From positions 1-64,000 of the forward strand of contig NXFV01001362.1 of the NCBI GenBank assembly GCA_002803225.1: 64,000 bases of DNA, written 5' to 3'. The translations under genes were made by a program, and so were the position numbers. Source of the DNA: Gamarada debralockiae (Eukaryota > Ascomycota > Leotiomycetes > Helotiales > Hyphodiscaceae). The notes beneath the pieces are model-generated. The model made no database searches. It saw only the letters and a program-made list of their open reading frames with translations, and was not told the DNA's origin. Below, one piece after another: positions 10,888-57,993 of the stretch (position 1 is its first letter; every line of letters starts with the position of its first letter).

Positions 10888-12072
10888 TCACCAGAAAAAC
10901 CTTTCATACCATTCCTTCTTTGGCCTTACCCCATAAACATGATTCACACATGCTCCTTCTGCTTCAAAGGTCCCTGACGCGCTGTGATTCTGACCATTTG
11001 ACCAGACATTGATGGGTAAGACTGCGATGCCCCGCATATCTTCCCCATCCTTTGCTTGATTCGGCTCAAGCCATAAAGTGGTTTTGAGCCCCTTAAACTT
11101 CTTCCACGATACCCTCCTCTCTAACCCCGCATCTCTATCTCTCAGCTCGTGGCCCTCTTTCAGACCCGCACTCAGAGCCTCTAGCACTGCATCAGTGAAC
11201 ATGCCAGCTCCAGATATTTCCGCTCGATGCTCCTCTTTCCATTCCCCATTTCCTCGGATCATCTCCATCCACCCTCTTCCACCACTAAGTCGTTCCTGAA
11301 CCTGACTATGGCTGATACTTCTCACAATCGCTTTGCGTAAGACAGGATCGAATCGTCTCGGCGCCCACACAGTCCCCATCGTGAAGCCAAAGCCTCTCGT
11401 CCAATCCAAATTCCCAAGCATATCCTCACTATAAAACGGTTCATCCCTCTCCACGCCAACCATCAAACTCACTTCCTTCCCTCCCTGCGTAATCTCCACA
11501 ATCGACGCACAATGCTGCAACGAGACCCGTTCCCAGGTATCGATATCTGTATAAAAACCCCCATAATACCAAAGCAGTAGATAGCGTGTCAGGTCGGACC
11601 GGAGAGAGGGATAGGTTTCGTACGCGGTGGCTATGGAGGGGAGGGACGAGTAGAGGGAGAGCAAGGATGTGGGGTGAGTTGTGAGGAGGTTGTATGTCCA
11701 GCCAGGGTTGTTGCTCCGCCATTGGTTTACCAACTCTGACATCTGGGCTGCGGATTTTGCAGTGGTGATTTGGTGGATTGTGAGGTTTGCTAGGAGGTTC
11801 TGGGGCGTGGAGGGAAGGGTAGATCGGATCTTTTTCTCGAGCGTCTGCAGCTGGGCATCGAGCGCAACTTCGAATGTGCGGTTGGTATATAGGCGGTAGA
11901 TGGAGGTGTGTTCGTAGGTTGCGCGGGATGCGTATTTCGTCGCTCGCCGCGGTAACTGGGAGCTAGGGAGAGGGGGGTGGACATTATTGTGAAGGAAGAA
12001 GTAGAGAAGGCCGTTAAGGAGTAGCATGTAGAAGAGAATCCGTAAGTTGCGACATCGTCGCATTCTCAGCAT
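10888..12072 (-). CDS. GT32 family glycosyltransferase (Och1-like), type II membrane protein
   Basis: Single exon of 394 aa with an ATG at 12072-12070. A basic N-terminus is followed by one hydrophobic segment (about residues 10-27), giving a Golgi type II signal anchor. The DXD-sugar domain signature is plain: LTRYLLLWYYGGFYTDIDTW, with D176-x-D178 as the metal/nucleotide-sugar ligand. The TIHQI block (about 98-102) matches the usual start of the catalytic fold. Family members such as Och1 add mannose to N-glycans or glycosylate lipids in the Golgi, using GDP-mannose or another donor. The donor and acceptor here are not determined by the sequence. The reading frame is intact. Divergent upstream DNA holds no neighbour for about 0.9 kb. 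Confidence 0.85.
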   Translation of the reverse strand: MLRMRRCRNLRILFYMLLLNGLLYFFLHNNVHPPLPSSQLPRRATKYASRATYEHTSIYRLYTNRTFEVALDAQLQTLEKKIRSTLPSTPQNLLANLTIHQITTAKSAAQMSELVNQWRSNNPGWTYNLLTTHPTSLLSLYSSLPSIATAYETYPSLRSDLTRYLLLWYYGGFYTDIDTWERVSLQHCASIVEITQGGKEVSLMVGVERDEPFYSEDMLGNLDWTRGFGFTMGTVWAPRRFDPVLRKAIVRSISHSQVQERLSGGRGWMEMIRGNGEWKEEHRAEISGAGMFTDAVLEALSAGLKEGHELRDRDAGLERRVSWKKFKGLKTTLWLEPNQAKDGEDMRGIAVLPINVWSNGQNHSASGTFEAEGACVNHVYGVRPKKEWYERFFW

Positions 12073-12954
12073 AGCGTTGGGCTTGCTTTGTATTCATTAG
12101 CTGATGGATTGCGGTTCGGCTTCGTGGAGTGGTCGCATTCTGCTGTTGGCCAAGTCCGGGGAAGGGCTTGGAGAATTGGGTTGGGAAATGAAGGACCCCT
12201 GAAGTCGGCTAAATTGCTTGGCGCATGTAGGATTTCACCGTTCGACGACATGTCATGGAAGAGCAACAACATCACTACTACTACCGGTACTTTAATTTGA
12301 ACATAGGATTTTAATCGCTCTAACGTTTCCAATGATTGAGGATTCCACCCTAAGGAGGGGTTAAAGGACGTCCAACGGTATCCTTGATTTCAATTGCGCA
12401 ATCAGAATGAACACTCAGGTTTCTTGTGGTCACTGAACCTTTCCTTCGGAAATTTTTAAACTAGGCGATTTTCAATTGCGGGGTCGAGCCTCACTGGTGG
12501 GGCTCAGAACTTGGTCATTTGGACTAGTCTGCAATCGCCACGGAGCTTGTGCACTCCCAAGCCTTCTCTCCGACAACTCATTCACGACAAATCTGGATTC
12601 CAGAAGCTGACCCAGAGAGGCTCCATTGGACTGTGTACACTATGTCACTAGGCGTTTCAACTGAGAGGCAGTGGAGAAGACAACAGAGACGACGGCGGTG
12701 GTGCTGCGTCATGGTTAGGATTACGCAGGAGACTTGTCGTTTTCTCTTGACTCGCCATTGCACAATGTGCTTTGAATGTTACAGTCGTTGTTGTTGTATT
12801 TCATTTAGCCCGACCTCTCCCTTAAATGGGATATGCAGGCTACCACCTATTAGAGATACCCATGCGCCTCTAATTCTACAGTTACTAAGTTACATGCAAA
12901 CAAAGTTTCGCTAGCGAAATCGGCTGCGGCTTTGAACACTTCTGAAAATTTACG
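12073..12954. other. gene-free interval 12073-12954
   Basis: It includes the promoter side of the GT32 gene. Only short, family-less reading frames are present, and no RNA gene or repeat was recognised. Confidence 0.35.
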
Positions 12955-13390
12955 GCAAGCCACATGCCAACGCTAGAATAAGATATCGTGTCAGATCCTT
13001 GGAAACTTGTGAAAAGTGCTTCTTGTAATCTGGAACCAGCGCATAAAGTAATGGCTCACCCTTCCGAGATTCGTCGCAGAGTGCAAGCATCCCAAAAAAC
13101 CCTGTCGCGAGGGTCAGAGGCTACGAAAGATCGGGTCAGGACGAGAAGCGTTGAAAAGTCCCAAAGTTCTTTAGAAAGCCGAATGCTAAATACGCCAGCA
13201 AGATTTGCTATTTTAATAGCAGAAACGGGTCGAAAATTTCCCAGAAACTTTGAGATAGCCAAAGGGCAGCCCAGCCAATACGGTCCCAATACCGCAGTTT
13301 CCCGTTGTAAAGCAACCATGGAGGAGTACGGGACAAGGCAAACTCCTGTACCACCCATACTCTAGAGAACCAGGGTTTCGAAATCAAGGA
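12955..13390 (-). pseudogene. HET-domain gene, C-terminal half (broken)
   Basis: The minus strand encodes the second half of a heterokaryon-incompatibility (HET) domain: ISKPWFSRVWVVQEFALS, the block after which HET genes continue, then LTRSFVASDPRDRVF (the DPRDKVYALLGL-like motif) and FGMLALCDESRKGEPL. At least one stop (TAG after FLLLK) and frameshifts, including one at a run of six T, separate these blocks. It starts abruptly at about 13384-13390, exactly where the N-terminal fragment at 19.4-20.0 kb stops. HET domains trigger cell death on non-self recognition in ascomycetes. This copy cannot make an intact protein. Confidence 0.75.
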
Positions 13391-14326
13391 GATCAAGACA
13401 CATGGCATTTGAATTGATTATGGGGGGGAGACAATTGTCTGGAAATCTGGCCCTCTTCAACCAAGGTTTGGAACTCTTGGCCGGACTATGTGGCATGCAA
13501 AATGCAAGAAGACATAGTCAATATTGTATGGATTTAGAGACGTCTTTCCGGTCTAGCACTAGTTTCATAGTGAGAGGTCTCAAAGAGTAGCGGAGGAATT
13601 GATTGACACTGAAACCCAAGCTTGCATAATCTGTGACAGTTTCGATCAAGGATAATTTGATGATAAAGAGGCTCGATGCTCCGACCTACCAAGTCGAATG
13701 ACAAGCACAAAGCACAAAGAAACAGCTTAGAGCACCCGCAAGGCCCTCCCTTTGTCTCGTTGTGGGAGCCGGAACCCAAACTTTCAGACTTCAGAGGCTC
13801 AGGGGTCAATATCAGGGTCTCAAAGACCTGATTCTTTGAGGAATGCGCCTGAAGAAGCGAATCAAGTGATCCCCCAACAATGCCAACATCTCCCCACTTG
13901 TTTACTGCGCTTCCAAGATGGCGAATCCCAGCCTCATTCTGGAGCCAATTTGCAACTACAAACCAGAATAGGGCAATATTTCAAGCTTTGACACCTTTGA
14001 CGTTCACACTGGCTTCCTTTCAGACTCCTCTTGCTCGCTCGCCGAAGACTGACTGTTTTCGGCGAAGCTCGAAGACTCAGACGGTTTCGAACTCCGTCCC
14101 TTCAATACAGTCAAGATCCTCGTCAGCCCACCATATGCAGAGGGTAAAAGTTCGCGATGACCAGAGCCACCCACAGCCATACCAATGCTATCACAACCCA
14201 TGCAACAAACAACTACCTGAAGTCAGCCAAATACTCGCAACGCGAGGAGAGTTGATGGCATACCTTAATTCTTCCCAACGACGAACCTCGCTCCATACAT
14301 CGGTACTTGGATTATCCCAAGTACGG
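13391..14326. other. unexplained sequence next to HET breakpoint
   Basis: It lies between the HET C-terminal half and the UstYa-like gene. Short reading frames exist on both strands but none resembles a known family. It is one end of the 6-kb segment that separates the HET halves. Confidence 0.35.
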
Positions 14327-15050
14327 CTACTGCTCGTTCGAGTGACGGTTCACTCCCAGGATTTGAGTGTCCACCACGTTTAGATCAAGTTTCCATTTTA
14401 CTGTCTGCATGATATAGTCGCTGCAGTGCTGTATATGTTCTTCTTTGTTATTCCATGGCTCAATATGTCTGGCATCAAACCCAGCTCGAAACTGTTTCTT
14501 CCATATAAACATGCAGTGCTGGATGTGCCACTCTCTTGTCGCAAAGTAGCCTTTTCCACGTTTGGCAAAGCCGTCGATTTGCTCATTAGTGAGAATTGCC
14601 TTTTCATTGGAGCCATTCGATAGAGCAGATGTGATTGAGTCATAGTATGGCCAAGATCCACCTTGTCCCGGCCCTGAAGCATCGAACTTCTCCGTAAGTT
14701 CATTGTCAATACAAGAACTCGGGAGCCAGTCGACAGCAATGTGATCGTAACGACAACCCATGGCTATAGCTTCCTGATCTGTTTTCCCACACCAGCAGCC
14801 AGGTGTTGCATTCTCCAGGGTAACTGAGACAGCCCTGAATGCTTGTCTCAATGCATCGATCAGACCCCATAGAGCCAGGAGCGCGACCACAACTTTGAGC
14901 AACAGGAACCAAGAAGAGGTCGAGGCCGGCACGTGATTGATAATGGTTTGAGGGCACAGATAGTGACTATTGAACGACTGCTTCGGAAGGCCCTGCGATT
15001 CCTCATCATGCTCATCTTTGTGCAAGTCATGTAATAAGCGAACAGATTGA
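14327..15050 (-). CDS. UstYa/DUF3328-like single-pass membrane protein, start unresolved
   Basis: An open frame of more than 230 codons ends at 14327. One membrane segment is present (SWFLLLKVVVALLALWGLI), followed by a luminal part with CWCGKTDQEAIAMGC, WLPSSC and two HxxHC motifs (EWHIQHC and EEHIQHC). Paired HxxHC motifs are the hallmark of UstYa-family proteins, oxidases that act in peptide natural-product and other secondary pathways. The N-terminal CGxTxxEAxxMGC signature marks a subfamily of unknown role. No ATG lies upstream in frame within the body. An acceptor-like CTAATAG precedes codon AGC near 15056, but candidate first exons (ATG near 15093 or 15130) do not join cleanly. It may therefore be a spliced gene or a 5'-damaged one. 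Confidence 0.6.
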
Positions 15051-16848
15051 TCGACGCTCTATTAGGGTCAGCCCATGTGGTAGCGCTCCTTCATGGTGTC
15101 ATACTTAAAACATTCTGCTTTGAGACCATGTACGAGTTGTGATAGAGAGAAATGCCAATGCTGCTGGTATACCTGTCAAACTAACAACTGTTGGCAACAC
15201 TGGTCAGGGGCGTAGCGATGCTTTTGACAATGATGCATCATTGCGCCTGTTATTGAAGGTTCGGATACTCGGAAGCTAGGGCTATCAAGTTGATTATGCT
15301 TATTTTTAGCCCTTTGAGCCAATATAAACTTTCGCTTCGTTTGGCAGTTTACGGATCTCCTGCTAGCTACACGAGTACAGCTCGCCCCCGCTCGGTATAA
15401 GCTCGCACGAACGACCGTTAATGCTGTTACATCGCTCCAGAGAAAAGTCTGGCAAAACGTGAACTGCATCTACTACCAGATATCAGAGCGTAAGGATAGC
15501 AGCCGAACTGACTCTGATTCGCCTTGACGACTGTTAGTACAGCTTTGTTTGAATTGATAATTGGCGGGATCATCCTCCACTGGTCCATAGATCCTGCAGC
15601 TGTAGCTATCCTACAGCTGTAGCTGAGAAACGACTCAGAGATTAGATATTCCTTGCTACTATAGAGGAGGCTTCATATGATCATAGGACGGCAAGCTAGT
15701 CAATTGGTGGAATTGTGTAACCCAGATCAACCATCTCGTATCTACAAGCGGAGAGGCAGCTTGGGGAACACGGCGACTCAGCCTGAATCATTGTACTGCA
15801 TCGATCACGAGTCCGCAATGCACGGAAGACTTGCCACAATGAGGCAAAGGCCGAGTATAACTCTTCTCAGAGTTTGCAGATAAGCAGCTCGTCAGCCAGG
15901 ATGTGTAGACGTTGCAAGTCGCTAAACTCGGTAAGGAAGGTCGAGGATCACAATACAGCATGTACAATGGTCTACTCGTAGAGGCAACCTGTTAGATCTA
16001 TAGTATCGTATATAAGGGAGCTGTCATATCGGGGCCAACCCCTGAAGGCGGGGAAGCTTAGCGATCTGTTGCATCGATTCCACCAATCTCCCGATTGGCC
16101 AAAGAAATAGGCAGAGAGATTAGAGAAATAAATGCAAGAGATCAAAGACCTTGAGGGGTGCACTTCCAGTACCACGAAACCGAAGCCACTGAGAGGCATT
16201 CAGTAGCAAACTCATCCTCAAGTGGCTTGAATTGAGAGTTGCAAGTTGCACAATTTGTGCAAGCTTTCTTGGCTTTCCCTGGGAACGAGGCAATATGGTA
16301 CTATATACCTGATTGGCTTGCGCCGTTCTCTTGCAGCTCCTATCCCTATACCATGTATGTTGCTGTACGGTTTCTGTAGGATTTTTTCCCCATACAAATA
16401 TTTACTTGCAAGGTGTGCACGTACGGGGGATTCTTCTTTGGGAAATAATAAACTTAAATTATTTTAATTCCTTATAAAATGGTTGTATCGCAAAGGTTTA
16501 AACTAGAAGTTTTGTAATTTTCGAGGTTATTTTTACAGTTAAAAAGTTCGCATCATAATTTTTGCCCGCATCACAATTATTGCTCCCACTTTAGGGCGAA
16601 GGGTCCCCTGAAGTGCGACCGGTCTGAGGGTTCACTATTAATATATGCTATTGAAGGGCACAGCAAGAGAAACAATCCAGACCTCTGATCAGTCGTAGGT
16701 GCGCATATTCCTTCGCACTCGAAAGCGAGCGTCGGGACATTCGAACCCGAGAATTTTGAATATCTGACATAGCTAAAGATGCAAGGTCAGGTCCCTTATA
16801 CCTCGATGAAAACATGTGGGGACTGAGCTGAAGAAACCAATAGAGCGG
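15051..16848. other. gene-free interval 15051-16848
   Basis: No convincing gene. A perfect 12-bp palindrome (CTACAGCTGTAG) and an adjacent direct copy of CAGCTGTAGCT lie at about 15597-15625. Several 60-100 codon frames occur but lack family resemblance and codon regularity. Confidence 0.35.
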
Positions 16849-16858
16849 TATATAAAAA
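16849..16858 (+). promoter_or_regulatory. TATA box of the small secreted peptide gene
   Basis: TATATAAAAA lies about 110 nt before the ATG at 16964. It is followed by a pyrimidine/CA-rich leader ending CCAAAAGTCATC, a usual layout for strongly expressed fungal secreted-protein genes. Confidence 0.5.
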
Positions 16859-16963
16859 GAGTCGCTCGTTGAGAGAAACTTGACTACTAGCGTTCATCAT
16901 TCGCATTCTTCTTGTGCACAGAACTCGCAAACCCTACAAGCCTCCTATCAACCAAAAGTCATC

Positions 16964-17570
16964 ATGGAATTTATTACCAGCATGTCCTTCCTTGCCACTA
17001 TTGCCAGTTACCTCTGCTTAGAGGCAGTAGCATCTCCTGTGGTACGTTAGTTCGTGCTTAAGCCTCTTCTATTCTGGCACTAATAGTATCGGGTAGGCCG
17101 AGATCGCAACCTCGAATCCATTAGCAGACTTTCCTAAGGTGACCCTGGACGGCAGGCCAGGCTTTGGCTTCGTCGACACCGATGGAGTCCTTTGAGCCTT
17201 CCTTCCTGATGGCACCGTCGTCGACGCCGCACGCTTGACCGCCGAGCAGGTGCAGCTCTGGGTCGATGTTAGAGCTCCGCATCTCTCCGAAGCCGATGCT
17301 GCGAAAGAACGCGCAATATATGCCGGCCTGGACTCCCTGAATGTGCCCGAGGCTCAGCTTCTATCTCCACCGGAGAGCGTAAAGCCTCAAGCTGAGATCG
17401 CGAAAATGACTGCGGCTGTCGAGAAAATGGCTGAGGCTGTTAGTCCTGCCAGTCCACTCCTAGAGAAACGACAAGTCATCATCAACTGTCCATCGCTCTA
17501 CTGTACGTCTAATCCTCAAGCCTGTCTCCCATATGGATGTGCTTGTTTAGCTATCTGTCGATATCTGTAG
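16964..17570 (+). pseudogene. small secreted cysteine-rich peptide precursor with in-frame TGA
   Basis: Exon 1 (16964-17041) encodes a signal peptide (MEFITSMSFLATIASYLC...). A 55-nt intron (17042-17096) with an ACTAAT branch site follows, then exon 2 (17097-17570). Together they give about 183 codons, phase 0. After a pro-region, a dibasic LEKR site precedes a C-terminal piece of about 33 residues with six cysteines (spacing C-x4-C-x6-C-x4-C-x-C-x3-C). This is the design of a Kex2-processed secreted peptide. One TGA at 17193-17195 interrupts exon 2, and everything downstream stays open and coding-like. I do not recognise a named family. It could be an effector, an antimicrobial peptide or a pheromone-like precursor, and the sequence cannot decide. 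It lies inside the segment separating the HET halves. Confidence 0.6.
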
Positions 17571-18645
17571 AGAGGGCTACAATCTGTTATTCATTGGGGG
17601 GCCTATTGGTAAAGGAATGTGAATGGGAATCCTTAGGGTTCGTTGGGGCCGTGTTTTGACGGATTCGGCCAGAGTTTCAACAACTTGGCTACGAGGCTTC
17701 CTCCGAAAGGGAGATTCTTCAAGTTCTTCTGCTGGAGAGGTGACCCGGGACCTTCATTTAGGCGTCAGCGCAATTGTTTTGATCTTTGTCTCTTACGCGT
17801 GTTCAATGTTTGAGAGTCGGGAGCTTCTTGAATGGGAGTGGTATCAAGTATGTTCTCTAGTAATGGAAGGTCGACGGTCACGACAGTTCGGCGTTGTCGA
17901 GTTGTTTGGACCTTCATGACCCCATTCTTATATGAATCGAGCACCATATTTCCCAGGCCTCAAAATCATGGCTTTTAATGTTGCATAATATCGAGTGGAT
18001 CGGGAGTGATCATGGTGGGCTGAAGTCGATGGTTGTTAATGTATAAAGTTGTGATGCTACTAAGGGCCTATCCCACCTTTGCTTCATGCTTCTAAACACA
18101 GATACTTGACATACCGGTCGCCAGAGACGTGATCACGAAAAACAAGCACTCATAGGATGGGCGGCCGGCGTCTACACATCCAGGAGCAAATCCCTTTACC
18201 TGATTCATCGAATCATTGCACTGGAAGGGGGGTGAAATTAAGTCAACCGACATCAACTGCTCCCACTTTTCTTTTGTTGTTTCTCTTAGAATACTCGTCA
18301 CTTTTCAATGGCGGCTCTCTTGACCATTGAGTCAAACTTGACTACTTCAGAGTGGATCTGTTCGTGCTAACAATGACCACTTGCGTGCTATCCAAGATGC
18401 AAAACAGTGGACTACGTGGACCACTGGCCAACGGGCTTTGATCCATTACAAGGATCAAGAGAGGGTATCAATCTATCAGCAGGACCCGAGACACATGCAG
18501 GTCGAGCGTGAGTAGAAAGAAGACTAGCTTGTATTTTGAATGTGGTCTTTCAGTGTCTGTACACTCAACCCATGTTCAAGTCCCACCGGCGACTTTGCAA
18601 CTAGTACCCCAAACCTCGAAGCCAAACTACACTCATCTTCTCAAG
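17571..18645. other. gene-free interval 17571-18645
   Basis: It holds the 3' flank of the secreted-peptide gene and about 0.7 kb in which I see no gene, repeat or RNA. Confidence 0.35.
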
Positions 18646-19406
18646 TCAGAATCCATGCTCAGCCATCCATGCATGCGATATATTAAACCCTTGCTGCGCA
18701 TAATAACCATGCTCCCAACAGTGTCCCGAATTGGGCAGAAGGTAGTAGGAATAGCTGCTGGAAGCTGGATACAGCAATTGAGTTGCCGCCACAATACCGT
18801 TGTTACAATTTCCTGGTCCATTAATCTCAAGTCCTGTTGTACCGCAGAACACTGTATCCTCTTCGCTATTGATCACGAAAACAGGCTTTGAGTATTGGGT
18901 CGTTGTAGATATGCCGACGGCGCCTGTAATAGCCTCGCCAACTGTGATAGTACCTCTGCTAGCATAGTCTTGCAGGATGAATACAGGATCGTAGTAAGGT
19001 GCGTAGAAGAAGAGGAAGGCAACGCCGGATGGGTTTGTTGCTCGCAGGTAGTCGGCCGGCTTACTGGGTGCTAGGAGGAGGACGGCGGTAGCAGTGAAGC
19101 CAGGTATCACATTCGTCCATTGTTTGCTGAGGCCGGTGAGATCGTGGCATCGACATCGTTGGGATATTCTGCGTTCACGACTACGTAGTCCGAAATTAGA
19201 ATTGGCGCGTAAAAGGAAGTTGAGATGTTTCATCAATTGACACCACACTCGCAGCTTTAATGAAGCCTGGGTGATACGTACTGTTGGCAACAATGGAGCC
19301 TAAGCTAGAACCGACGAGAATGATTTTGTTGAAAGAACGAGGCAGTGGAGAACCGCCATTCGAACCTGGGCGAATGATTCCGACCATTTGGTGACAGTGG
19401 AAGCCT
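18646..19406 (-). pseudogene. alpha/beta hydrolase, 5'-truncated and frameshifted
   Basis: The minus strand encodes the C-terminal two thirds of a fungal alpha/beta hydrolase. Visible are the nucleophile elbow FNKIILVGSSLGSIVAN (G-S-S-L-G), an acid region (PVFVINSEEDTVFC) and the catalytic-His region LLPNSGHCWEHGYY, ending AWMAEHGF. An intron of about 100 nt beginning GTACGTATC follows VAN. Shortly after it, one base is missing near GCCACGATCTCACC, breaking the frame before LTGLSKQW. The 5' end is missing: coding sequence begins mid-protein at about 19406, directly abutting the HET N-terminal fragment. Related enzymes are often secreted esterases or lipases, but the substrate is unknown. Confidence 0.75.
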
Positions 19407-20015
19407 AAGCAGGGTAAAGAGTTCATCCCACGCCCTATCTGAAAACGGGGGTAGTGCCATGGATAATGTTTCTTGTTGGGTTAACCTTTTTGAAAGCGGC
19501 ATTGGGACTTTAAAGGTAGATGAATGGTCTGGACGCCCCAGTGCTGCACTTTCACGAATGGCAATGTTATAAATGCTTTCTGAAAGCTTGAAACCAGCTT
19601 CTAGTTCCTCGTCGCAAAGGCCTAGCCAAACCACAGTTGTTTCCGCTTTGGAGTAAATTCGATACATTAGTTGAGTCTGGTATGCGCGCTCGTCAAGATC
19701 CTCCTGGTTGATGCATATTTGATCAATCCACAGCCATTGAGTTGATAGTTTCGGAATTTTCTACATCTCGGCAATTCCATGTTCCAGCTGGTTTGATATC
19801 AGAATCGAAAATTCGTTGCAGTGGAGAATACGAGTGCGATCAGGCGACCCCCAACAATAGCTAAGGGCATAAAATTCGGGCAAATCATTAGAATCAAGAT
19901 GGAACGTCTTCACCAAGATGGTCTGGTTTTCCGACCTAAGGGATGGTAACATGATTAAACGAATCAGACTCTGGTTGCCTAGATCATCATCGTACACGTT
20001 TGGTTCGTGTGATTG
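19407..20015 (-). pseudogene. HET-domain gene, N-terminal half (broken)
   Basis: The minus strand reads LPEFYALSYCWGSPDRT, then WLWIDQICINQEDLDERAYQ, then YSKAETTVVWLGLCDEE, the three classic blocks of the HET domain in order. A TAG at 19763-19761 interrupts the frame before KIPKLSTQW. It is one C-to-T change from a Gln codon. The fragment ends with WDELFTLL at about 19407, and downstream sequence switches to the alpha/beta hydrolase. In intact HET genes ELFTLL-type sequence leads straight into SRPWFxRVWVVQE, which is what the fragment at 13.4 kb begins with. No ATG was found before an upstream TAA, so the start is also lost or lies in a separate exon. Confidence 0.8.
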
Positions 20016-20390
20016 TTAAATCTTGTGGTCAAAATTTCGGAGTTGAGAGATGAAGTTGGTTATATTGAAGTTTTGGCTTGCCAACTCCTACTTATCGCCT
20101 TGGCTTCGATGGGCCGCTGAGCCCTCACTCGCCAGCTTTTTTGGTGGGCGGCCCAGCCTCCTGCTCCTCCTTCACTTCCAGTCCTCCCAGATTATCATAC
20201 TTGTCTTTTTTTATTGGGGGGATGGTGGTGGCCCATCAGCTCGATTGGAGGAGGAGCTCAAGGCTTAGACTTTGGTAGAAAACCGCGCACCTGTACGAAG
20301 AACGATTTCAAAATTCATGAGACTACAGGGTATTTTGCCCCTGTGGCTGCCTAAGCGACCACTCTAGACCTACTGTACAGGAGTCTAGCG
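20016..20390. other. gene-free interval 20016-20390
   Basis: I see no gene. Short frames on the plus strand (about 20050-20280) have no family resemblance. Confidence 0.3.
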
Positions 20391-20898
20391 ACAGCCGCGG
20401 GTTGCCCAACTTGGGCTGACGACCGATTTGCCCGTCGCCCACGCGTCCACTCCATTCCGCCTGCCTGGCTCAAGCCTGGGACTCCTGTGCATTTCACCGG
20501 TCACCGCCGTCTCACGCAAAGTCGGCAACGCCTTCGCGTATGAGATGTTCGCTCTGGCAAAAGCATATGGCGCAGACGAGCTTCCGGGCAGGCCGCTGCA
20601 AGTGGTGGACGACAATGCTCCGCTCGATGAGGCTGTTGGTGAGAGAGTCGCATATTACACGCAACAGACGGCAGCCCAGCTGCAAGCTTTTGGGAAATGG
20701 GCTTACTGGACGCAAGTTGGAATGCATGCGAAAACGTCCACTGGGGGTGGATATGAGAATGCGGCGGCGTGGGCAGGGGAGGCTATTGCGCAAACGGATG
20801 ATACTAAAGAGGGGGTTGGGGCGTTTTTGGAGAAGAAGTCGTATTGGTATACATGTGTGCGAAAATCTGTGACAGGAGGTTTTATGTATACTGCATGA
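20391..20898 (+). pseudogene. enoyl-CoA hydratase/isomerase (crotonase) fragment
   Basis: An open plus-strand frame encodes the central and C-terminal part of a crotonase-fold protein: PVAHASTPFRLPGSSLGLLC (the oxyanion-hole region of the family) and GGGYENAAAWAGEAIAQTDD with GVGAFLEKKS near the end. The N-terminal third, including the CoA-binding start of the fold, is missing, and a TAG lies just upstream of 20391. The tail after FLEKKS departs from the family. It is treated as a truncated gene. An unrecognised short first exon is possible but unlikely. Confidence 0.6.
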
Positions 20899-21005
20899 AC
20901 AATCGAGCCTCGGATACTGTCACGCTCTCCCTTGCAGACTCGAAGTTGATATGCAAATACCTCCTCTACATTTCTCATGGCTTGAAACTATATCCGGCAA
21001 CATGA

Positions 21006-49111: not shown

Positions 49112-50690
49112 TTATGAGGGAATTAAAGCACCGTGGCTGACCAGTATCTCGACAATCTTCTCGTGGCCTCTGGCCGATGCGGCCTGTAGCGCATTGCCGT
49201 AGTCTCCACCTTGTGCATTGATGTCGGCGCCGTGGCTGACCAGTATCTCAACAACCTTCATGTGGCCGTTGTCCGATGCGGCGTACAGCGCGTTGCTGTA
49301 GAATTTGTCTTGTGCATTAACATTGGCACTATGGCTGACTAGTATCTTAACAACCTTCTTGTGGCCTCTAGCTGATGCGGCCTGCAGCGCGTTGCTATAG
49401 TGTCCGCCTTGCGCGTTGATATTAGCGCCATAGCTGACTAGTATCTCAACAATCTTCTCGTGGCCTCCGGCCGATGCAGCCTGTAGCGCATTGCCGTAGA
49501 ATCCGCCTTGTGCGTTGATGTCGGCGCTATGGCTAACTAGTATCTTGACAACCTTCTCGTAGCCTCTGTCTGATGCAGCATATAGCGCGTTATTGTAGAA
49601 TCCGCCTTGTGCGTTAATATTGGCGCCATAGCTGATTAGCATCTCAACAATCTTCTCGTGGCCTTTGTCTGATGCGGCCTGTAGCGCATTGCCGTAGTAT
49701 CCGCCTTGTGCGTTAATATCGGCGCTGTGGCTAACTAGTATCTCGGCAATCTTCTCGCGGCCTCTGGCCGATGCGGCGTACAGCGCGTTACTGTAGAATC
49801 CGCCTTGCGCGTTGACATCAGAGCCGTGGCTGACCAATATCTCGACAATCTTCTTGTAGCCTCTGTCTGATGCAGCCTGTAGTGCGTTGCCATAGAATCC
49901 ACCTTGCGCGTTGACGTCGGCGCCATGGCTGACCAGTATCTCGACGACTTTCATGTGGCCGTTTTCTGACGCAGCATACAGCGCGTTGCCGTAGTCTCTG
50001 CCTTGCGCGTTGACATCAGCGCCGTGGCTGACCAGTATCTCGACAATCTTCTCGTGGCCTCTGACCGATGCAGTATACAGCGCGTTGCCGTGCTCTCCGC
50101 CTTGCGCGTTGACATCAGCGCCGTGGCTAACTAGTATCTCAACAATCTTCTCGTGGCCTCTGTCTGATGCAGCATACAGCGAGTTGCCATGGTCTCCGCC
50201 TTGCGCGTTAACATCAGCGCAGTGGCTAACTAGTATCTCAACAACCTCCTTGTGGCCTCCGGCTGATGCGGCCTGTAGCGCGTTGCCGCAGTGTCCGCCT
50301 TGCGCGTTGATGTCGGCGCCGTGGCTGACCAGTATCTCAACAATCTTCTCGTAGCCTCCGGCTGATGCGGCCTGTAGTGCGTTGCTGTAGAATCCGCCTT
50401 GTGTGTTGACGTTGGCGCCGTGGCTGACCAGTATCTCAACAATCTTCTCGTGGCCTCCGGCTGATGTGGCCTGTAGTGCGCTGCTGTAGAATCCGCCTTG
50501 TGCGTTGACATTGGCGCCGTGGCTGACCAGCAGTTCGACGACTTTCATGTGGCCTCTGGCCGATGCGGCCTGCAGCGCGTTGCCGTAGTCTCCGCCTTGC
50601 GCGTTGACATCGGCGCCGTGGCTGACCAGTATCTCGACGACTTTCATGTGGCCCTCTCCTGCAGCCCATGACAACATTGTTCCGCCGCTT
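49112..50690 (-). repeat. 99-bp tandem repeats encoding 16 ankyrin units
   Basis: Inside the NLR gene, units of 99 bp keep a fixed frame, each ending VSHGADVNAQ or a close variant. Changes concentrate at repeat positions 3-4, 9, 13-14 and 16-18 (for example DY/FY/HC/EH, Q/Y, AR/AG/DR/EN, HM/HE/YE/HK), with the framework almost unchanged. That is the high-internal-conservation pattern of fast-evolving fungal NLR repeats. Confidence 0.85.
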
Positions 50691-53428
50691 TTGAGCGTCG
50701 AAGTAATATCAACATCGTAAACGGATAAGAACCGATGAATGAGTGCAGGTTTTCCATGTTTGACTAAGAAGGAACCGAGCTCGTCGCCTGGATAAGGAAA
50801 TTCAGAGTGATGTGGATGTGCTTGGCTGTCAGCTCTGACGAGCGCCTCGAACGCTTGGTGGCAGTCATTCACGATAGCAGCAAATATAGGATTGCCATAT
50901 CGCCCACTTTGGCGACGTGTGCATGGCCCGTCTTGCATCAATATATTGATGAGATTGGAACAATCCTTTTCAGCAAGTATGTACAGTAGATCTATGTCTG
51001 GCGGGAGACGGCGGACCTGGAATCTTTCGATAATGTTATTTAGCTGTATCCAGTTGCTGAGCTCGAAATCTTTCAGGAAGCATTCCTGGCCCACTCCTTC
51101 GGCGTGTGCAACATTAGCATGAGCAAATATGTTGCGAACCGCGTATTCCAGAAAAGAAAATCGGAGTGATGCTTTTTTGCGTAGCTCAGCTCCTTCAGGA
51201 GAGGATGCTAAAGGGAGGGATCCATCAATGCCTAGATAGCTGGTTATATTCAATCTTATATAATTCGAGCAGCACTCCTTCAGGCGATCTTGGCTCAAAC
51301 CAATGCTATTGGCCTTTAGATCTGCCCAGACCTGGCCAAGTCCATTTTCCTTCAGCAGAAAGTCCTTAACGGATTCGTGAATGAACTGTACAGTATGGTG
51401 CTTTGACTTCGTGATTTCAGCCAGGCCCTTCGAGGAGCTGAGGATAAACAAATCCATAGTTTCTGGAGAAACTATTCCTAGATCAAACGAAAAAAGCTCA
51501 TCAGGCTCCGTTCCCGACAAGATCGCGAAATAAAGTTCCTCTCGCTTCAGTGGCCGATTTGCAAATAGAATACATTGAAGGCAAAGCTTCATTTCGTCCA
51601 AATTTTGATCGTCTCGGGTCAAAATTGTTCGGAAAAGCTCATTTAGATCGTTCGGTATCTCCCGGAGCTTCTTCTGTAGGGTGTGTACTTTGCCATGGTC
51701 GAAAGCTTTGTTGAGAATTTGCACGACAAGAATAATCCACATGAAGATCCCTGAGGATCTATCACGTATCTCTTGTCTGATCTGTTCAGCTTGCTTACCC
51801 CGTCCAGCTTTCAGTTCACTAGAGAGGTACCTGTCAATATCCTGGGAGTGACCCTGTTGATCTTCCAATTTCATCTCTACGGATCGTTGAATCGTGATGT
51901 GCGGGTAGTGTCGACTTGAGAAGAGGACATGAAATGCCCTCCTGTTAGAAATTGCATCTTCTCCAAGCTTTTCGAAGAAGGCTATCATGTCTCGTACTTC
52001 ATCCTCATCGCACTCGTCGAGCGCATCAACAATAACCGTGATGCTATGTTGATCCAGTATCTGTAGGGCTTGGGCCAATAGATGCTTGAGCATTTCGCGG
52101 TTCATCTTAAGCCGACCGTCTGAGGGCCGGTGGGTCAAGCTTGTAATGTTCCAAACTTGTTGACTGCCTGGGAATTTTTCAAGCAATTGGACAAGTAGAG
52201 ACCTGTACAACCCTATGGTGTTCTTCTCAAGATCAGAACCCCTAGCATTAAAGAAAAATGAGAGAAGCGTGGTACTCCGCGAGGATTTTCTGAGCTCCAT
52301 GAATGCAAACTTTGTCAGCGTTGATTTGCCGCATCCAGGCTTTCCTTTGATCCAGAAGATTCCATGATGCTCGGAGAGTTTATCAGCGTTCATCCAGTCC
52401 AAGTATTCGGTACTTTCAAGCAGCCATCTGCAAGTTTTTGTATGACCCGGCCTGATGTTCATATACCGATCATCAATTTGGTCAAAGCGTAAAGACTCAA
52501 GCAAATCTTTCTTTATAGATGGAGGAAGGCTGTGATCGATGTCTGGAATGTTCGATCCAGTCTTCACACGCTTCGAGGGAGGCTCTACTTCTTCTATAGT
52601 AGCATGATATTAGTAAAGACGACGTATAATTGAAAAGAAAGATTCGATTCAAAAACATTCTGGTGATAAGACTAACGACTTACTGTTTAAAGCCTCATCA
52701 ATCTCCTTGAGAAGCCGACGGCGCGCATTGCTCATCCCCTCGCCATAGATGAGTGGCATATGAATACCAAAAATGCCTAGGAGAGAGTAGGATTTGTCTT
52801 CTTCACGCTTGGTCTCGCGTTTTGCCGCCCACGACATTCGCTCATCAACGGTGAACTCCGGTAGAGCGCGTCCATGAAGTGCCGAAATTGGAATTCCTGT
52901 AATTTCATGGATCTGTTGCTCGAGGGACTGCTTATCACCCAGTCGCGTATGCTCTTCAGAGAAGAATTCGACCGACGCGGGAGCAAGGAGCTCCTGAAGC
53001 GTCCAGCCTCGAGTAAACCATTTACTTTTCCGAAAAGCCGATTCCCATGTGTTCTGCGAAGTCTGGTCTCTTTCTTTTCTCTTGCATGTCGAGACATCAG
53101 ACAGGTAAACGTAACACTTGGCCGCACGATGATACCAGCGGAACATCGAGTTGATCGCCTCTGAAAACTCGGCGTCGCTTGATTTCTTGATGCAACAACT
53201 GTCCACCCAGAAGTATTGTAAGCCATCCTTGGCCGCTTGTTCTCCACAGAATTTGATCTTGTCATTACCGGCTTTGCCCTGGCCAGAACCCTCGACCATG
53301 TCTTCAAAGGTGACCTCTTCGCTGTCCTGTCCCCATGTGTGTGAAAGGATAGCATATGGAGGGAGGTCGTCAAGCAGATTCGCGGTTAAATGGAAGCGGC
53401 CGTCATTCTGGCGTTCTAAAAGACGCAT
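49112..53428 (-). CDS. HET-NACHT-ankyrin NLR-like non-self receptor
   Basis: Two exons, 53428-52684 and 52593-49112, joined in phase across a 90-nt intron, give 1408 aa. The N-terminal HET domain (residues 1 to about 250) starts MRLLERQNDGRFHL and includes YAILSHTWGQDSEEVTFEDM, FWVDSCCIKKSSDAEFSEAI, FTRGWTLQELLAPASVEFFS and SYSLLGIFGIHMPLIYGEG. A NACHT NTPase follows with Walker A GKPGCGKST (332-340) and Walker B VIVDALDECDEDE. From about residue 885 to the end are 16 ankyrin repeats of mostly 33 aa, very alike. In fungi this architecture senses non-self (heterokaryon incompatibility or xenorecognition): the repeats bind the ligand, NACHT oligomerises and HET triggers cell death. No stop or frameshift is seen. 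This is the only intact HET gene in the window. Confidence 0.93.
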
Positions 53429-54400
53429 TGTTGCGTACAGGTGTCGCGTCGCGAGGCTCAGAAGGGTGATGCTTACTGACAGTTCGACTACAACGGTGAC
53501 GCTAGTTAGCGAAAAAGCTCCGTTAATGCTAGCATCTAACCATATCCCGATGCATTCGGTTATGGGAGTAGACGTCTAGAGTGCGTGATTTCTGCTTTGA
53601 TCTGTTATGTAGACGAGGCTGAATCCGAACCGCTGCGCGCGTGGCTTTGTTATGCACCAACCCGGACCAGGCTTGGCGCAGGCAAGTGCATGCAGCAGCT
53701 GCAGCACATCCGGAGGGTGGGGACGGAGTGTGAAAACAGTCGCGACATGGCGATTTATTGATCGTGTTAGGCTCACGTTCTATCAGCTAGCCCAAGTGCT
53801 GGTCCGATATCAAACCGAAGATTATCTGCTCATTGCACCTACCTTCGCCCTCCAAACAGAAATTTGCACTTTTGCGATAATGTTATTGCTTTCTTCTCTG
53901 ACGCTATAAGATACTGTTGGCCAGCCTATCTTATACTCGGTGCCACAAAGTAGATAAGAGAACACTGCCAAGTAAATAAGAGAAAATTTTGACGCGCGAT
54001 CAGAGGCCACACGTTGTAGTGCGGCGTTGTGTAAGTAGCAGTAGATATATTGCGCGTATTAATACTGAAAGACAAGAGTCGGGAAAATCCAAACTGATCA
54101 ATTGATGGGTTAGAAAAAGTGGAAAGACCAGGATTCCATTGGTCAATTTCTCTTGGCATCGACATTTGAAAACTGATATTTTGCTTACTAGCCTCTTGGC
54201 ATACAGTACGTACAGTACTAGGTCACGATAAAGGGCCATTGAACCGAGAACACCAAAACCCAAAACTTAACCTCCTAATTAAATCACATATAACTCACCT
54301 AATTTTAGAGCTAGCTAAATATAAATTACAGCATTAAATTCACATGGTTTTAAGCTAAAATTTGTACAATTCAGATTTTTTGCGCAACCTTCTAGTGACC
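53429..54400. other. intergenic 53429-54400
   Basis: Upstream of the NLR gene and downstream of the transposase. The right part (54250-54400) is AT-rich and probably belongs to the transposon's 3' end. No clear terminal inverted repeat was found. Confidence 0.35.
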
Positions 54401-55495
54401 CTAGTATTTTGTGTGCCAGCCATCTGCCTCGATACAAGCCTTGATTCTCTTCTCCATACTCCCGACTAGACTCTCGAAGAGTGAGTTGGGTAATGCATCC
54501 TACGCTGCGCATAATGCTTTTTCAAGTGCATCTAAATCCTCTGCCGACTCGCCGCTTGCATTCCATAACTCAGGGTACATCTTATTAACCATCTCCTTTA
54601 GTGCTTTCCAAGCGTGCTCGATCGGGTTCAGGTCAGGCGAGTAAGGAGGCCAATCTGTGATCTGTATGCCGTTTTCTCTAAACCAATCTCTAACCTTATG
54701 AGCTGTATGTATTGGCGCATTGTCTTGCATAAAAATTAAGTCGTCGACATAATAGTAAGGGAGGTTATCTTCGAGGACTTTAATGTAGGACCTTGCTGAA
54801 TACCCATGCTTCTTCGACTCCCAATCGCGCTCTAAAATATAGAGTGGAGTACGTTCTGCGTATCCCCAAAAGGCAGCCCAGACCATGACTCGTAGTTGCT
54901 TGCCCTTTTTATATGTCAAGACGTGCGAAGGTTTCCATTTATCACTTGGAGTACCGAAGACCCAAAGTTGCTCTTGTCCTTTCCCTCTCTCTGCCGAACA
55001 CTTATTACTCCATATGTATTTTCTCTACCTTGCAGTATCCCAATGGGCTCGCTGGCGGCACCAAAGTAATCGCATTTGAGCGACCTCTTCAGTGAGTTCA
55101 GGGCGTCTCTTTGCGCGCCAGTGCTTAAGCCCAAACTTCCTCGCAATTCGCTTGATAGTAGAGTTGCTCATTTCAAGGCCAGTTTCCTTCCGCCGGTCCC
55201 TAAACTTCATTCCGGGATGCAATCGCAAATTTCGAAGCATCATTCGTTCGTCTCGGTCATCGTAGGTAATCGGACCGCCTGGGCGAATTTGGGACTCTCC
55301 TTGTGGTCGTGCTGTAGCGTTTTCAAGAGTGCCTCTCACGGCTTTGCGAGATACTGAAAACGCGTCTATAATTGCAGCCTCTTTTGCGCCAAAATAATGC
55401 GCCCCAACAATTAATCCTCGCTCATATGGAGTAAGATCCCTCCCACGAGGTCTATTTCCAGATATCTCGCCGAGAACTCGACGTATTGGTGGCAT
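54401..55495 (-). pseudogene. Tc1/mariner-family transposase, inactivated
   Basis: The frame is continuous for 365 codons from ATG at 55495 to TAG at 54401, interrupted by TAG at 55027-55025 and 54502-54500. An N-terminal HTH region (GRDLTPYERGLIVGAHYFGA, SNSTIKRIARKFGLKHW) precedes a DDE domain. The second and third catalytic positions are visible (FMQDNAPIHT and SPDLNPIEHAWK, Tc1-like spacing). The first, normally Asp in W-S-D-E-x-x, reads W-S-N-K, so both Asp and Glu were changed as if by G-to-A. Both stops sit where a Trp fits, again G-to-A. The lesions are all transitions of one strand sense, as in RIP. Terminal inverted repeats were not recognised. Confidence 0.85.
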
Positions 55496-57993
55496 TTCGA
55501 AGATTTGTTGTAGGTGTGTAGGTGGAAGACGCGATGCGTGTCGCGTAATTTTCGTGTTCTGGCCCTTTAACGTGATCGCTTACTGTAGGGGTCTGAAGAC
55601 CGCTACGAAGTACGGCCCGCCACATTTCTCTTCACCATACATAGAACACTTGGGCATTTTTCTAACGTATCAGATGGATAAAGTGGACATCGAGCCACGT
55701 CTCACCCATTCTAAAAATGCAAGAAACAAGGTCTTACTAGTTCATTACTTGAGAACATTTTGCAGCCGTGAAGCATTAAGGAAAAGAGTAAGGTAAAGAA
55801 AATTGAGATCAAGGTAATTTTCACACATGAAACGTTTTACACGGTGGTAAGAAGCCAGAGAGCGTAACTTTCGAAGTAAAACAAAGTAGCTTCACGTTTG
55901 GACAGAATGTTGCCCACGATAGCGTGCCTCGTCGAGATGCGGTTTAGTAGATCAAATAGCAGTTGCTTTAGAAGACGGTGTCATTCGTATTACTCACAGG
56001 TACCTTTTGATTCTCGCTATTTGTTTGGAGACTGCCTTTTATATGTGCAATGCCATAAACATGGAATCAGAATGAGGCTCCGGTAAAATTAGATATCCTA
56101 GCTCTATAATACAAAGAATCAGTTCAGCGATTCAGCAAGTCTTGTCCGTAAGAGGCTGTGATGACTTCAACCTCTCTAATATTGCAGACGCTTCATTTAC
56201 AATTGGCGCGACTCTATATCGCTCTTTTTAAAGCTTCTGCTATGCTGTCTTGTTTTCGTAAATCACTTTGTAGATGCTAGTCTTCTAAGTTTGTTGTGTA
56301 TAACATTACCCTAAGTTGATTCGTGGCCTCTTTAGCCTTTCTCTTTAGCTGCGCCTCTACTGCGGCGGTACCTCTCCATCTGCCTAACTTAGACTTTAAT
56401 GTTGAATTTTCTGGTTTTAATTCTAAGATTCTCGCCGTGAAATTTTCTTTGGCCCTTGCGAGCAATGTATGCTATATTTGGGATTAGCTTGAATCTTCTT
56501 AAATAATAAGTAGGAATATATACAATTTTAGCAACAGCTCCAAACGAAGCGCTGACTTCACGATAGAGCTCCATATAAGCTCCAATCGAGTGCTTACTTA
56601 AGCTCTTTTCAAAGAGGTGTACTTTTATTAGTAGATATTTCTATAAATAAGGGTCTTCTACATTTGTTATCAAACAGACTGTAACAGCTACAGATAGCTG
56701 GAGGGCAACAGGAGGGATCGCAGTATATCAGAGAAGTAGCAGTTCATTGAAGGAAGAAGTTGTTGTTGTATTGATAATAGGATTCCTGAGCATTCGTACG
56801 ATCTGGTTTCTGAAACTCAAGCTTGCCCTCTCTCAAGTAGGGGCTAGTTCCTTACTTATACCTCAAGCAGCTAACTAAGTAACTAACCAAGTATCTGACT
56901 GGGTATCTGACTGAGTAGCTAACCAAGTAACTGACCGAGTAGCTACTATAGTAGTACCGTCTCCTAACACTTGTAAGCCTTGCCTGCCAAACCTCTGGGA
57001 CCCCAGCCGAATCCAAACTGTGGAACTAAAAAAAGGACTGCTATGCGCTGCGCAGTGGTGGGCCGTCTCAGTTACTTTCTTGAAGAGCGGATTTCGGAAG
57101 CAGGAAATGGACGACCTCAACTTGTTACCTCGTAAATCAAGGATACGGCCTTCTTATATAACCCCATCTGTCTCCACTCCCTTCTTCATCCTCTCTCTCC
57201 TCCGAAAAACTTGTACTCTTCATACCCAAATCTCTTCGCTCCATCTCTCTCCACCCTGGCGCAGCCCCTCGAGACAACAAGCCCCTCCCTCAACTTCTTC
57301 CTCGTTGTCCCAATTTCGACACCTAGTCCACATGCATCGTCGTCAAACAGCATCCACCTCTTCGACCGACGACAGCAACATCCAGTCCCTCACTATCTAG
57401 GCACTATTATATGGTGATTTGTCAGTTTGATATGATATAAAATAAACTTAGAGCTGAAGGATCGCTCTATTGTCGAAATATTAGAGGAAAATTGAATGCA
57501 AGGGCAGCAAGTATTTTTTGATATTCTCTAATGGTTGAAGTTGTACTGGTTGGAAATACAGGCTTTAAGGATATTCGCCGTCCATAGAAATCTTTCTAGA
57601 CCATTTCTGATATTAAGAACGTCTCGAGTTCAACAGAGTAGAAAAATATCATTCATGTGACTCTGCGACATATCTAGAGCGTCTTCTCGTCTAGTCCAAG
57701 ACCCGAGATAGATCCAACTTACCAAGCGACAGAATTACCTACGTAGTTTATGTCTGATCTCTCAGTTGAATGAAATCTGTACCACTTAGCACAAAAAGAA
57801 AATGAGGCATTGTGAATTTGATGGCTTGATCTAATTGTATAAAAGCAAGTAATGGCTCTCTACGCAGTGCCCGTCTCATATCTCCTATCTTAAAAGCCGG
57901 TAGACTTAGCGTTACTAATTTACTTCTGCCAATCGATACCCACGTAAATCCAGAAGGTGCGAAAGTAGACGACAAACTGCCTCCCAATCGTGT
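55496..57993. other. gene-poor accessory interval
   Basis: It contains two short minus-strand fragments near 56277-56574 with coiled-coil-like sequence (LELKPENSTLKSKLGRW, EAQLKRKAKEATNQLRVM) that may be the tail of a lost gene, the minisatellite at 56868-56951, and a Ser/Thr-rich plus-strand frame ending near 57400 that I cannot support as a gene. Confidence 0.35.
56868..56951. repeat. 12-bp minisatellite, seven units
   Basis: Seven consecutive 12-bp units of the form TA(A/G/T)CT(A/G)AC(C/T)(A/G)AG with few substitutions, starting at 56868. In frame on the minus strand they would encode a Q-S-D-T / W-L-V-T alternation, but no gene is evident. Confidence 0.7.

What the first reader, a model, noticed from the sequence alone, without database searches (positions are those of the whole stretch)
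12955..20015. One HET gene apparently split into two collinear halves 6 kb apart
The N-terminal HET fragment (19407-20015) stops at WDELFTLL. The C-terminal fragment (13390-12955) starts at ISKPWFSRVW, which is the very next block in a HET domain. Both are on the minus strand in the right order, with no overlap and no missing block. About 6.0 kb lies between them, carrying a UstYa-like gene, a secreted-peptide gene and an alpha/beta hydrolase that is truncated exactly at the junction. That is best explained by insertion or ectopic joining of a foreign segment into a HET gene.
Basis: partly seen in the sequence, partly recalled or inferred. Interest (0 to 1): 0.8.

Follow-up and report, generated by a model that had tools for sequence, protein, structure and literature searches.

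The report
Dead fungal HET gene, split open
A fungal self-recognition (HET) gene has been cut in two by about 6 kb of other DNA and has decayed into a dead relic; the split is real and precise, but dead HET genes are known in fungi, so this is an ordinary piece of genome wear.

Summary
Two minus-strand pieces, 20015-19407 and about 13396-12956, read as collinear halves of one HET gene. Both match the same outside homologues. In 8 of 8 homologues where both alignments reach the cut they meet in one constant register, so nothing is missing at the junction. The intervening ~6.0 kb begins with an alpha/beta-hydrolase gene lacking its first ~160 of ~393 residues, and holds a UstYa-like ORF and a small secreted-type peptide ORF.

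Corrections: the HET gene is broken in other ways too. It has a stop in the N half, a stop and two frame changes in the C half, and its last ~40% was not found. In the insert I found no transposon protein, paired terminal repeats, target-site duplication or second copy. A neighbouring ECH fragment also seems 5'-truncated.

I read this as a degenerated HET pseudogene interrupted by non-transposon DNA in a patchwork region. No sister genome was held, so the empty site and the insert's origin are untested. A test of partner halves was supportive but not decisive. Interest is low.

The parts
19407..20015 (-). N-terminal half of a HET pseudogene (one in-frame stop at 19763-19761)
   Evidence: PF06985 positions 1-35 and 44-142; 42% identity over 96% to P0001; P0001 residues 98-288; stop position
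12956..13396 (-). C-terminal piece of the same HET pseudogene (stop at 13210-13208 and two frame changes; ends about residue 426 of a 710-residue homologue)
   Evidence: PF06985 positions 132-146; P0001 residues 287-426, 93.1 bits; alignments and frames
13382..19406 (.). Interrupting segment, about 6.0 kb; no second copy found in this assembly except for one 43-bp stretch
   Evidence: constant register at the junction; own-genome DNA search; no TE protein, paired terminal repeats or target-site duplication seen
18649..19400 (-). 3' part of an alpha/beta-hydrolase gene, cut at the junction (first ~160 of ~393 residues absent), with one apparent intron (about 19281-19184, read from the sequence) and a frame break near 19140
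   Evidence: alignments to P0091 and P0089; own-genome search with P0091 gives residues 157-216 and 217-393 here
17196..17570 (+). ORF for part of a small secreted-type peptide with a Lys-Arg site and a Cys-rich tail; stop codon immediately upstream in frame
   Evidence: ORF; no relative found in this genome; no Pfam family
14327..15058 (-). UstYa-like (DUF3328) ORF with two H-x-x-H-C motifs
   Evidence: PF11807 E 0.0009, below the family cut-off; 12 other matches in this genome, 27-42%; motif read from the sequence
16060..16102 (+). 43-bp fragment, about 90% alike at two other places in the assembly
20389..20895 (+). Neighbouring enoyl-CoA hydratase/isomerase fragment, apparently 5'-truncated
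   Evidence: PF00378 positions 105-245 of 251; no ECH match by Pfam in the three + frames of 19900-20450

Best explanation
This is a dead HET-domain gene (shown), once a single gene (strongly supported), interrupted between the codons for ...LFTLL and SKPWF by about 6 kb of non-transposon genomic DNA. That DNA carries the 3' end of a hydrolase gene, a small secreted-type peptide ORF and a UstYa-like ORF. The likeliest route is capture of an ectopic genomic fragment during repair of a double-strand break (inferred). The HET gene also carries stops, frame changes and no detectable 3' end, so it cannot make a whole HET protein. Whether it died before or because of the insertion is not known.
For: Both halves match one homologue back to back: P0001 98-288 / 287-426, P0002 13-200 / 202-336, P0003 4-194 / 196-336. 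The register was constant in 8 of 8 homologues that reach the cut, and C followed N in 25 of 25 with good matches to both. Of 69 homologues of 500 aa or more, 5 are in both top tens; Spearman 0.60 between the two score lists. In this genome the N half alone (191 residues) scores 139.1 bits with P0001, level with the best paralogue (139.5 bits over 605 residues, 28%) and above the other 60 of 62 matches (119.6 bits or less); matches over more than 200 residues are 25-33% identical, this piece 44%. The hydrolase lacks its 5' part at the junction. No inverted pair joining the two ends among the 25 of 30 listed, no shared junction word above 6 bp, and no TE domain in the insert ORFs scanned.
Against: No empty-site allele was seen, since no relative genome is held. 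The half-matching test is not decisive: the window's correlation (0.60) resembles true halves (median 0.57 of 64), but 9.8% of swapped pairs reach it, and the window's own partner ranks only 13th and 11th of 65. The independent C-half database search returned only 4 proteins, none of them N-half hits, although several N-half hits score higher when tested directly. P0017, not P0001, is the C half's best homologue by 0.8 bits. Over short conserved stretches some paralogues are more like P0001 than this locus is (48% over 104 residues on C677). The truncated ECH neighbour and missing HET 3' end suggest more than one event.
Confidence: 0.75

Rival explanations
1. Two unrelated HET relics that happen to lie 6 kb apart in the same orientation.
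For: The genome holds at least 150 HET-domain stretches, some with stops (11 of the 150 best listed; 7 of 62, this locus included). The half-matching test alone does not exclude it.
Against: Constant register at the junction in 8 of 8 homologues; 5 of 10 best homologues shared, P0001 first and second; no other close member of this subfamily found in the genome.
Confidence: 0.06
2. A small mobile unit (non-autonomous element or Helitron-like gene carrier) brought the 6 kb in.
For: A neat cut into a coding sequence and a captured gene fragment; transposase ORFs of Tc1/mariner type lie elsewhere in the window; one 43-bp stretch inside the segment occurs at two other places.
Against: No inverted pair joins the two ends among the 25 of 30 listed, no target-site duplication, no TE protein in the insert ORFs scanned, and no second copy found.
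Confidence: 0.1
3. Stepwise rearrangement (several deletions, translocations or inversions) rather than one insertion left the HET halves flanking other DNA.
For: Neighbouring ECH seems 5'-truncated, the HET 3' end was not found, the hydrolase is 5'-truncated, and the peptide ORF has a stop just upstream.
Against: Preserved order, strand and zero-loss register of the two HET halves need only one insertion.
Confidence: 0.18
4. Assembly chimaera.
For: The assembly has 1112 contigs; reads are not available.
Against: No repeat seen at either junction that would drive a misjoin, and the insert is single-copy up to both junctions.
Confidence: 0.04

Closest known systems
HET-domain (PF06985) gene family, HET proteins of about 580-710 residues such as P0001-P0009
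   Same: Both halves align to these proteins in order; the N half carries most of the HET domain.
   Different: Interrupted, with stops and frame changes, and without a detectable C-terminal 40%.
HET pseudogenes in other fungi, for example the het-6 and tol-related genes of Sordaria macrospora with internal stops (PMC2851567, passages seen)
   Same: A HET gene with stops in an otherwise recognisable reading frame.
   Different: The passages seen describe stops and partial or extra copies, not a 6-kb gene-carrying segment inside the HET domain.
UstYa / DUF3328 genes near Kex2-processed repeat peptide genes (PMC7329392, abstract and passages seen)
   Same: The insert holds a UstYa-like ORF and a Lys-Arg-containing secreted-type ORF about 2 kb apart.
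   Different: The peptide ORF shows no Kex2 repeat (one tandem array, 21 bp x 2 at 17398-17440), has an in-frame stop just upstream, and the UstYa match is below the family cut-off; cluster function is not shown.

Membership tests
HET domain family (PF06985) | Sequence match to the HET profile above its cut-off | tested here: met
   19760-19407: 61.1 bits against a cut-off of 22.5; the other two pieces are below the cut-off (14.8 and 14.7)
HET domain family (PF06985) | Continuous open reading frame coding a whole HET domain | tested here: not met
   Interrupted by ~6 kb, with a stop in each half and frame changes in the C half
HET domain family (PF06985) | Cell-death activity | not testable with these tools
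   No expression or phenotype data
Insertion by a DNA transposon | Target-site duplication and terminal inverted repeats | tested here: not met
   No shared junction word over 6 bp; no inverted pair joining the two ends among the 25 of 30 listed
Insertion by a DNA transposon | Transposase or other mobility gene, or further copies | tested here: not met
   None in the insert ORFs scanned; no second copy found in the assembly
UstYa (PF11807) | Profile match above cut-off | tested here: not met
   19.6 bits against a cut-off of 25
UstYa (PF11807) | Two H-x-x-H-C motifs (motif recalled, from no call) | tested here: met
   HIQHC twice in the ORF 14327-15058

The most novel reading that the evidence does not exclude
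The 6-kb segment is a small gene-carrying mobile unit (a UstYa-like gene plus a secreted-peptide gene) that moves without recognisable transposon ends and here landed in a HET gene, removing a self-recognition specificity from this lineage.
Probability: 0.05. Interest if true: 0.5.

Novelty: new member of a known kind. Interest (0 to 1): 0.18.

Why it matters
It is a clean example of a HET gene lost by interruption, with both halves still readable, so the event could be dated if a sister genome became available. HET genes are among the most abundant and copy-variable domains in fungal genomes (PMC10197012, passages seen), and relics like this show one route of loss. It does not open a new question by itself.

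Tried and rejected
Target-site duplication: the longest shared words across the two junctions are 6 bp (ACCCTG, CAAATG), a common value for random pairs of window stretches (228 of 500 pairs had 6; 103 of 500 had 7 or more). RIP: composite index negative in 13 of 13 stretches, so no RIP signature. Second copy of the insert: none found except a 43-bp piece. Second copy of the gene arrangement: the hydrolase matches and the UstYa matches share no contig but the window's own. Missing 3' HET part: a profile of 18 homologue C-termini gave only negative scores in 11900-13100 and in the whole window; P0001 427-710 matched 102 places in the genome at E up to 10, none on this contig, so the search could find typical copies. 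Missing 5' hydrolase part: an orphan first exon exists at C443 (L060 4526-4852), but it is only about 35% like P0091, shares no DNA with the window by blastn and cannot be tied to it. Insertion of the whole HET block into the ECH gene: no ECH match by Pfam in the + frames of 12090-13000. RNA families in 12000-21000: none at gathering score. The ncbifam scan of three proteins gave nothing over a cut-off. An own-genome search with the ORF 13537-13980 at the insert's left end found no clear relative, so I could not tell whether that end cuts a gene too.

Full report
What was checked. The window is bases 1-64000 of a 69,733-base contig (C639) in an unnamed 54.3 Mb, 1112-contig assembly, fungal by its gene content, for which no related genomes are held. 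The finding concerns two HET-like pieces on the minus strand.

The pieces are real. Pfam places 20015-19764 on HET positions 1-35, 19760-19407 on 44-142 and 13390-13217 on 132-146. The end pieces are weak alone, so I looked for outside homologues. A search with the N half found 81 proteins, the best three at 42-43% identity over 96-98% of the query. I then scored both halves against the 69 homologues of 500 or more residues among the 85 held (16 shorter ones were left out). The best N-half homologue, P0001, was second-best for the C half (93.1 bits against 93.9 for P0017) and gave residues 98-288 for the N half and 287-426 for the C half. Of the 25 homologues with good matches to both halves, the C match followed the N match in 25; 8 of the 25 have alignments reaching the cut from both sides, and the offset was identical in 8 of 8. 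In that register the N half ends ...LFTLL and the C half goes on SKPWF, with nothing missing. The C half's upstream codons (LISLI) also look HET-like, but they overlap the N half's LFTLL and agree with it mainly in hydrophobic pattern; I take this as chance.

One gene or two? This genome has at least 150 HET-domain stretches (150 scored of 770 candidates). Searched with P0001, 62 matches were listed at E <= 1e-12. The N half alone (191 residues, 44% identity) scores 139.1 bits, level with the best paralogue (139.5 bits over 605 residues, 28%) and above the other 60; matches over more than 200 residues are 25-33% identical, but over short conserved stretches some paralogues are closer, up to 48% over 104 residues. 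The C half's best own paralogue by E-value is 42% over 51 residues. Five of the ten best homologues are shared by the halves. A formal test of partner halves was supportive but not decisive: the window's correlation is 0.60; 64 true pairs have a median of 0.57; swapped pairs have a median of 0.22, with 9.8% at or above the window; and the window's partner ranks 13 and 11 of 65. The C-half database search on its own returned four proteins, none of them N-half hits; several N-half hits score higher when tested directly, so I read this as a limit of that search's word filter. The constant register is the strongest argument for one gene.

The gene is dead in several ways. The N half has a stop at 19763-19761. 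The C half has a stop at 13210-13208, and its similarity moves to another frame and back. Homologue residues 427-710 have no counterpart that a profile of 18 C-termini could find in the window, and a direct search with P0001 427-710 hit 102 places in the genome but none on this contig.

The insert. Its right end is the 3' part of an alpha/beta-hydrolase gene. Of six relatives found, the best is 76% identical over 68% of the query. The full-length relative P0091 (Diplocarpon mali, 393 residues) aligns here only from about residue 157-165, at 19420-19392, which is the junction. There is an apparent intron at about 19281-19184 (read from the sequence) and a frame break near 19140. Further left are an ORF for a small secreted-type peptide (17196-17570, stop immediately upstream in frame, no own-genome relative found) and a UstYa-like ORF (14327-15058, below the Pfam cut-off, two H-x-x-H-C motifs; 12 other own-genome matches at 27-42%). 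Seven more insert ORFs, among ten scanned, gave no TE family. No second copy was found but for 43 bp. I saw no inverted pair joining the two ends (25 of 30 pairs listed), no target-site duplication and no RIP signature, and base composition is like the flanks. 'Foreign' is therefore not shown.

Neighbourhood. The ECH fragment just upstream of the HET N half (20389-20895, plus strand) also seems to lack its 5' part (positions 105-245 of 251; nothing ECH-like by Pfam just upstream), and no ECH match was found on the left side in 12090-13000. So three genes appear truncated within about 8 kb, which points to a patchwork region with more than one event.

Interpretation. The best-supported reading is one HET gene, now a pseudogene, interrupted by about 6 kb of non-transposon DNA, probably captured at break repair. 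Shown: the pieces, their register, the decay, the hydrolase truncation. Inferred: a single event, break repair, the order of events. Not testable here: an empty site, the donor site, read support.

Known context. HET genes with stops and partial copies are described in Sordaria macrospora (PMC2851567, passages seen). HET families are large and highly variable between fungi (PMC10197012 and PMC3778014, passages seen). Islands of species-specific genes rich in pseudogenes and repeats are described in Aspergillus fumigatus and relatives (PMC2289846, abstract and passages seen). In four searches of the paper library, of which I read the listings and the passages, I saw no report of this exact arrangement. 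The kind of event is ordinary, so the score is low.

Noticed in passing
window 49115-53575 (-): A HET + NPHP3_N/NACHT + ankyrin gene (NLR-like) with about 15 ankyrin units of 99 bp, 81% matches in the tandem-repeat report, the kind of repeat array that can change quickly; the HET part and the rest lie in two neighbouring ORFs.
   Followed up: no
window 54503-55579 (-): Two ORFs of a Tc1/mariner-type transposase (HTH_Tnp_Tc3_2 and DDE_3), next to the NLR-like gene.
   Followed up: no
window 20389-20895 (+): Apparently 5'-truncated enoyl-CoA hydratase/isomerase fragment beside the HET N half, with no other match found in the assembly.
   Followed up: partly
L060 4526-4852 (C443): Orphan first exon of a hydrolase of the same family, ending at an intron-donor-like site with no further hydrolase match in the fetched 9 kb; not linked to the window by DNA.
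   Followed up: partly
window 17196-17570 (+): Secreted-type peptide ORF with a Lys-Arg site and a Cys-rich tail about 2 kb from a UstYa-like ORF, reminiscent of Kex2-processed peptide plus DUF3328 pairs, but with a stop codon just upstream.
   Followed up: partly
window 16060-16102: 43-bp fragment found about 90% alike within 0.6 kb of the ends of two other contigs (C329, C947), perhaps a remnant of a small repeat.
   Followed up: partly
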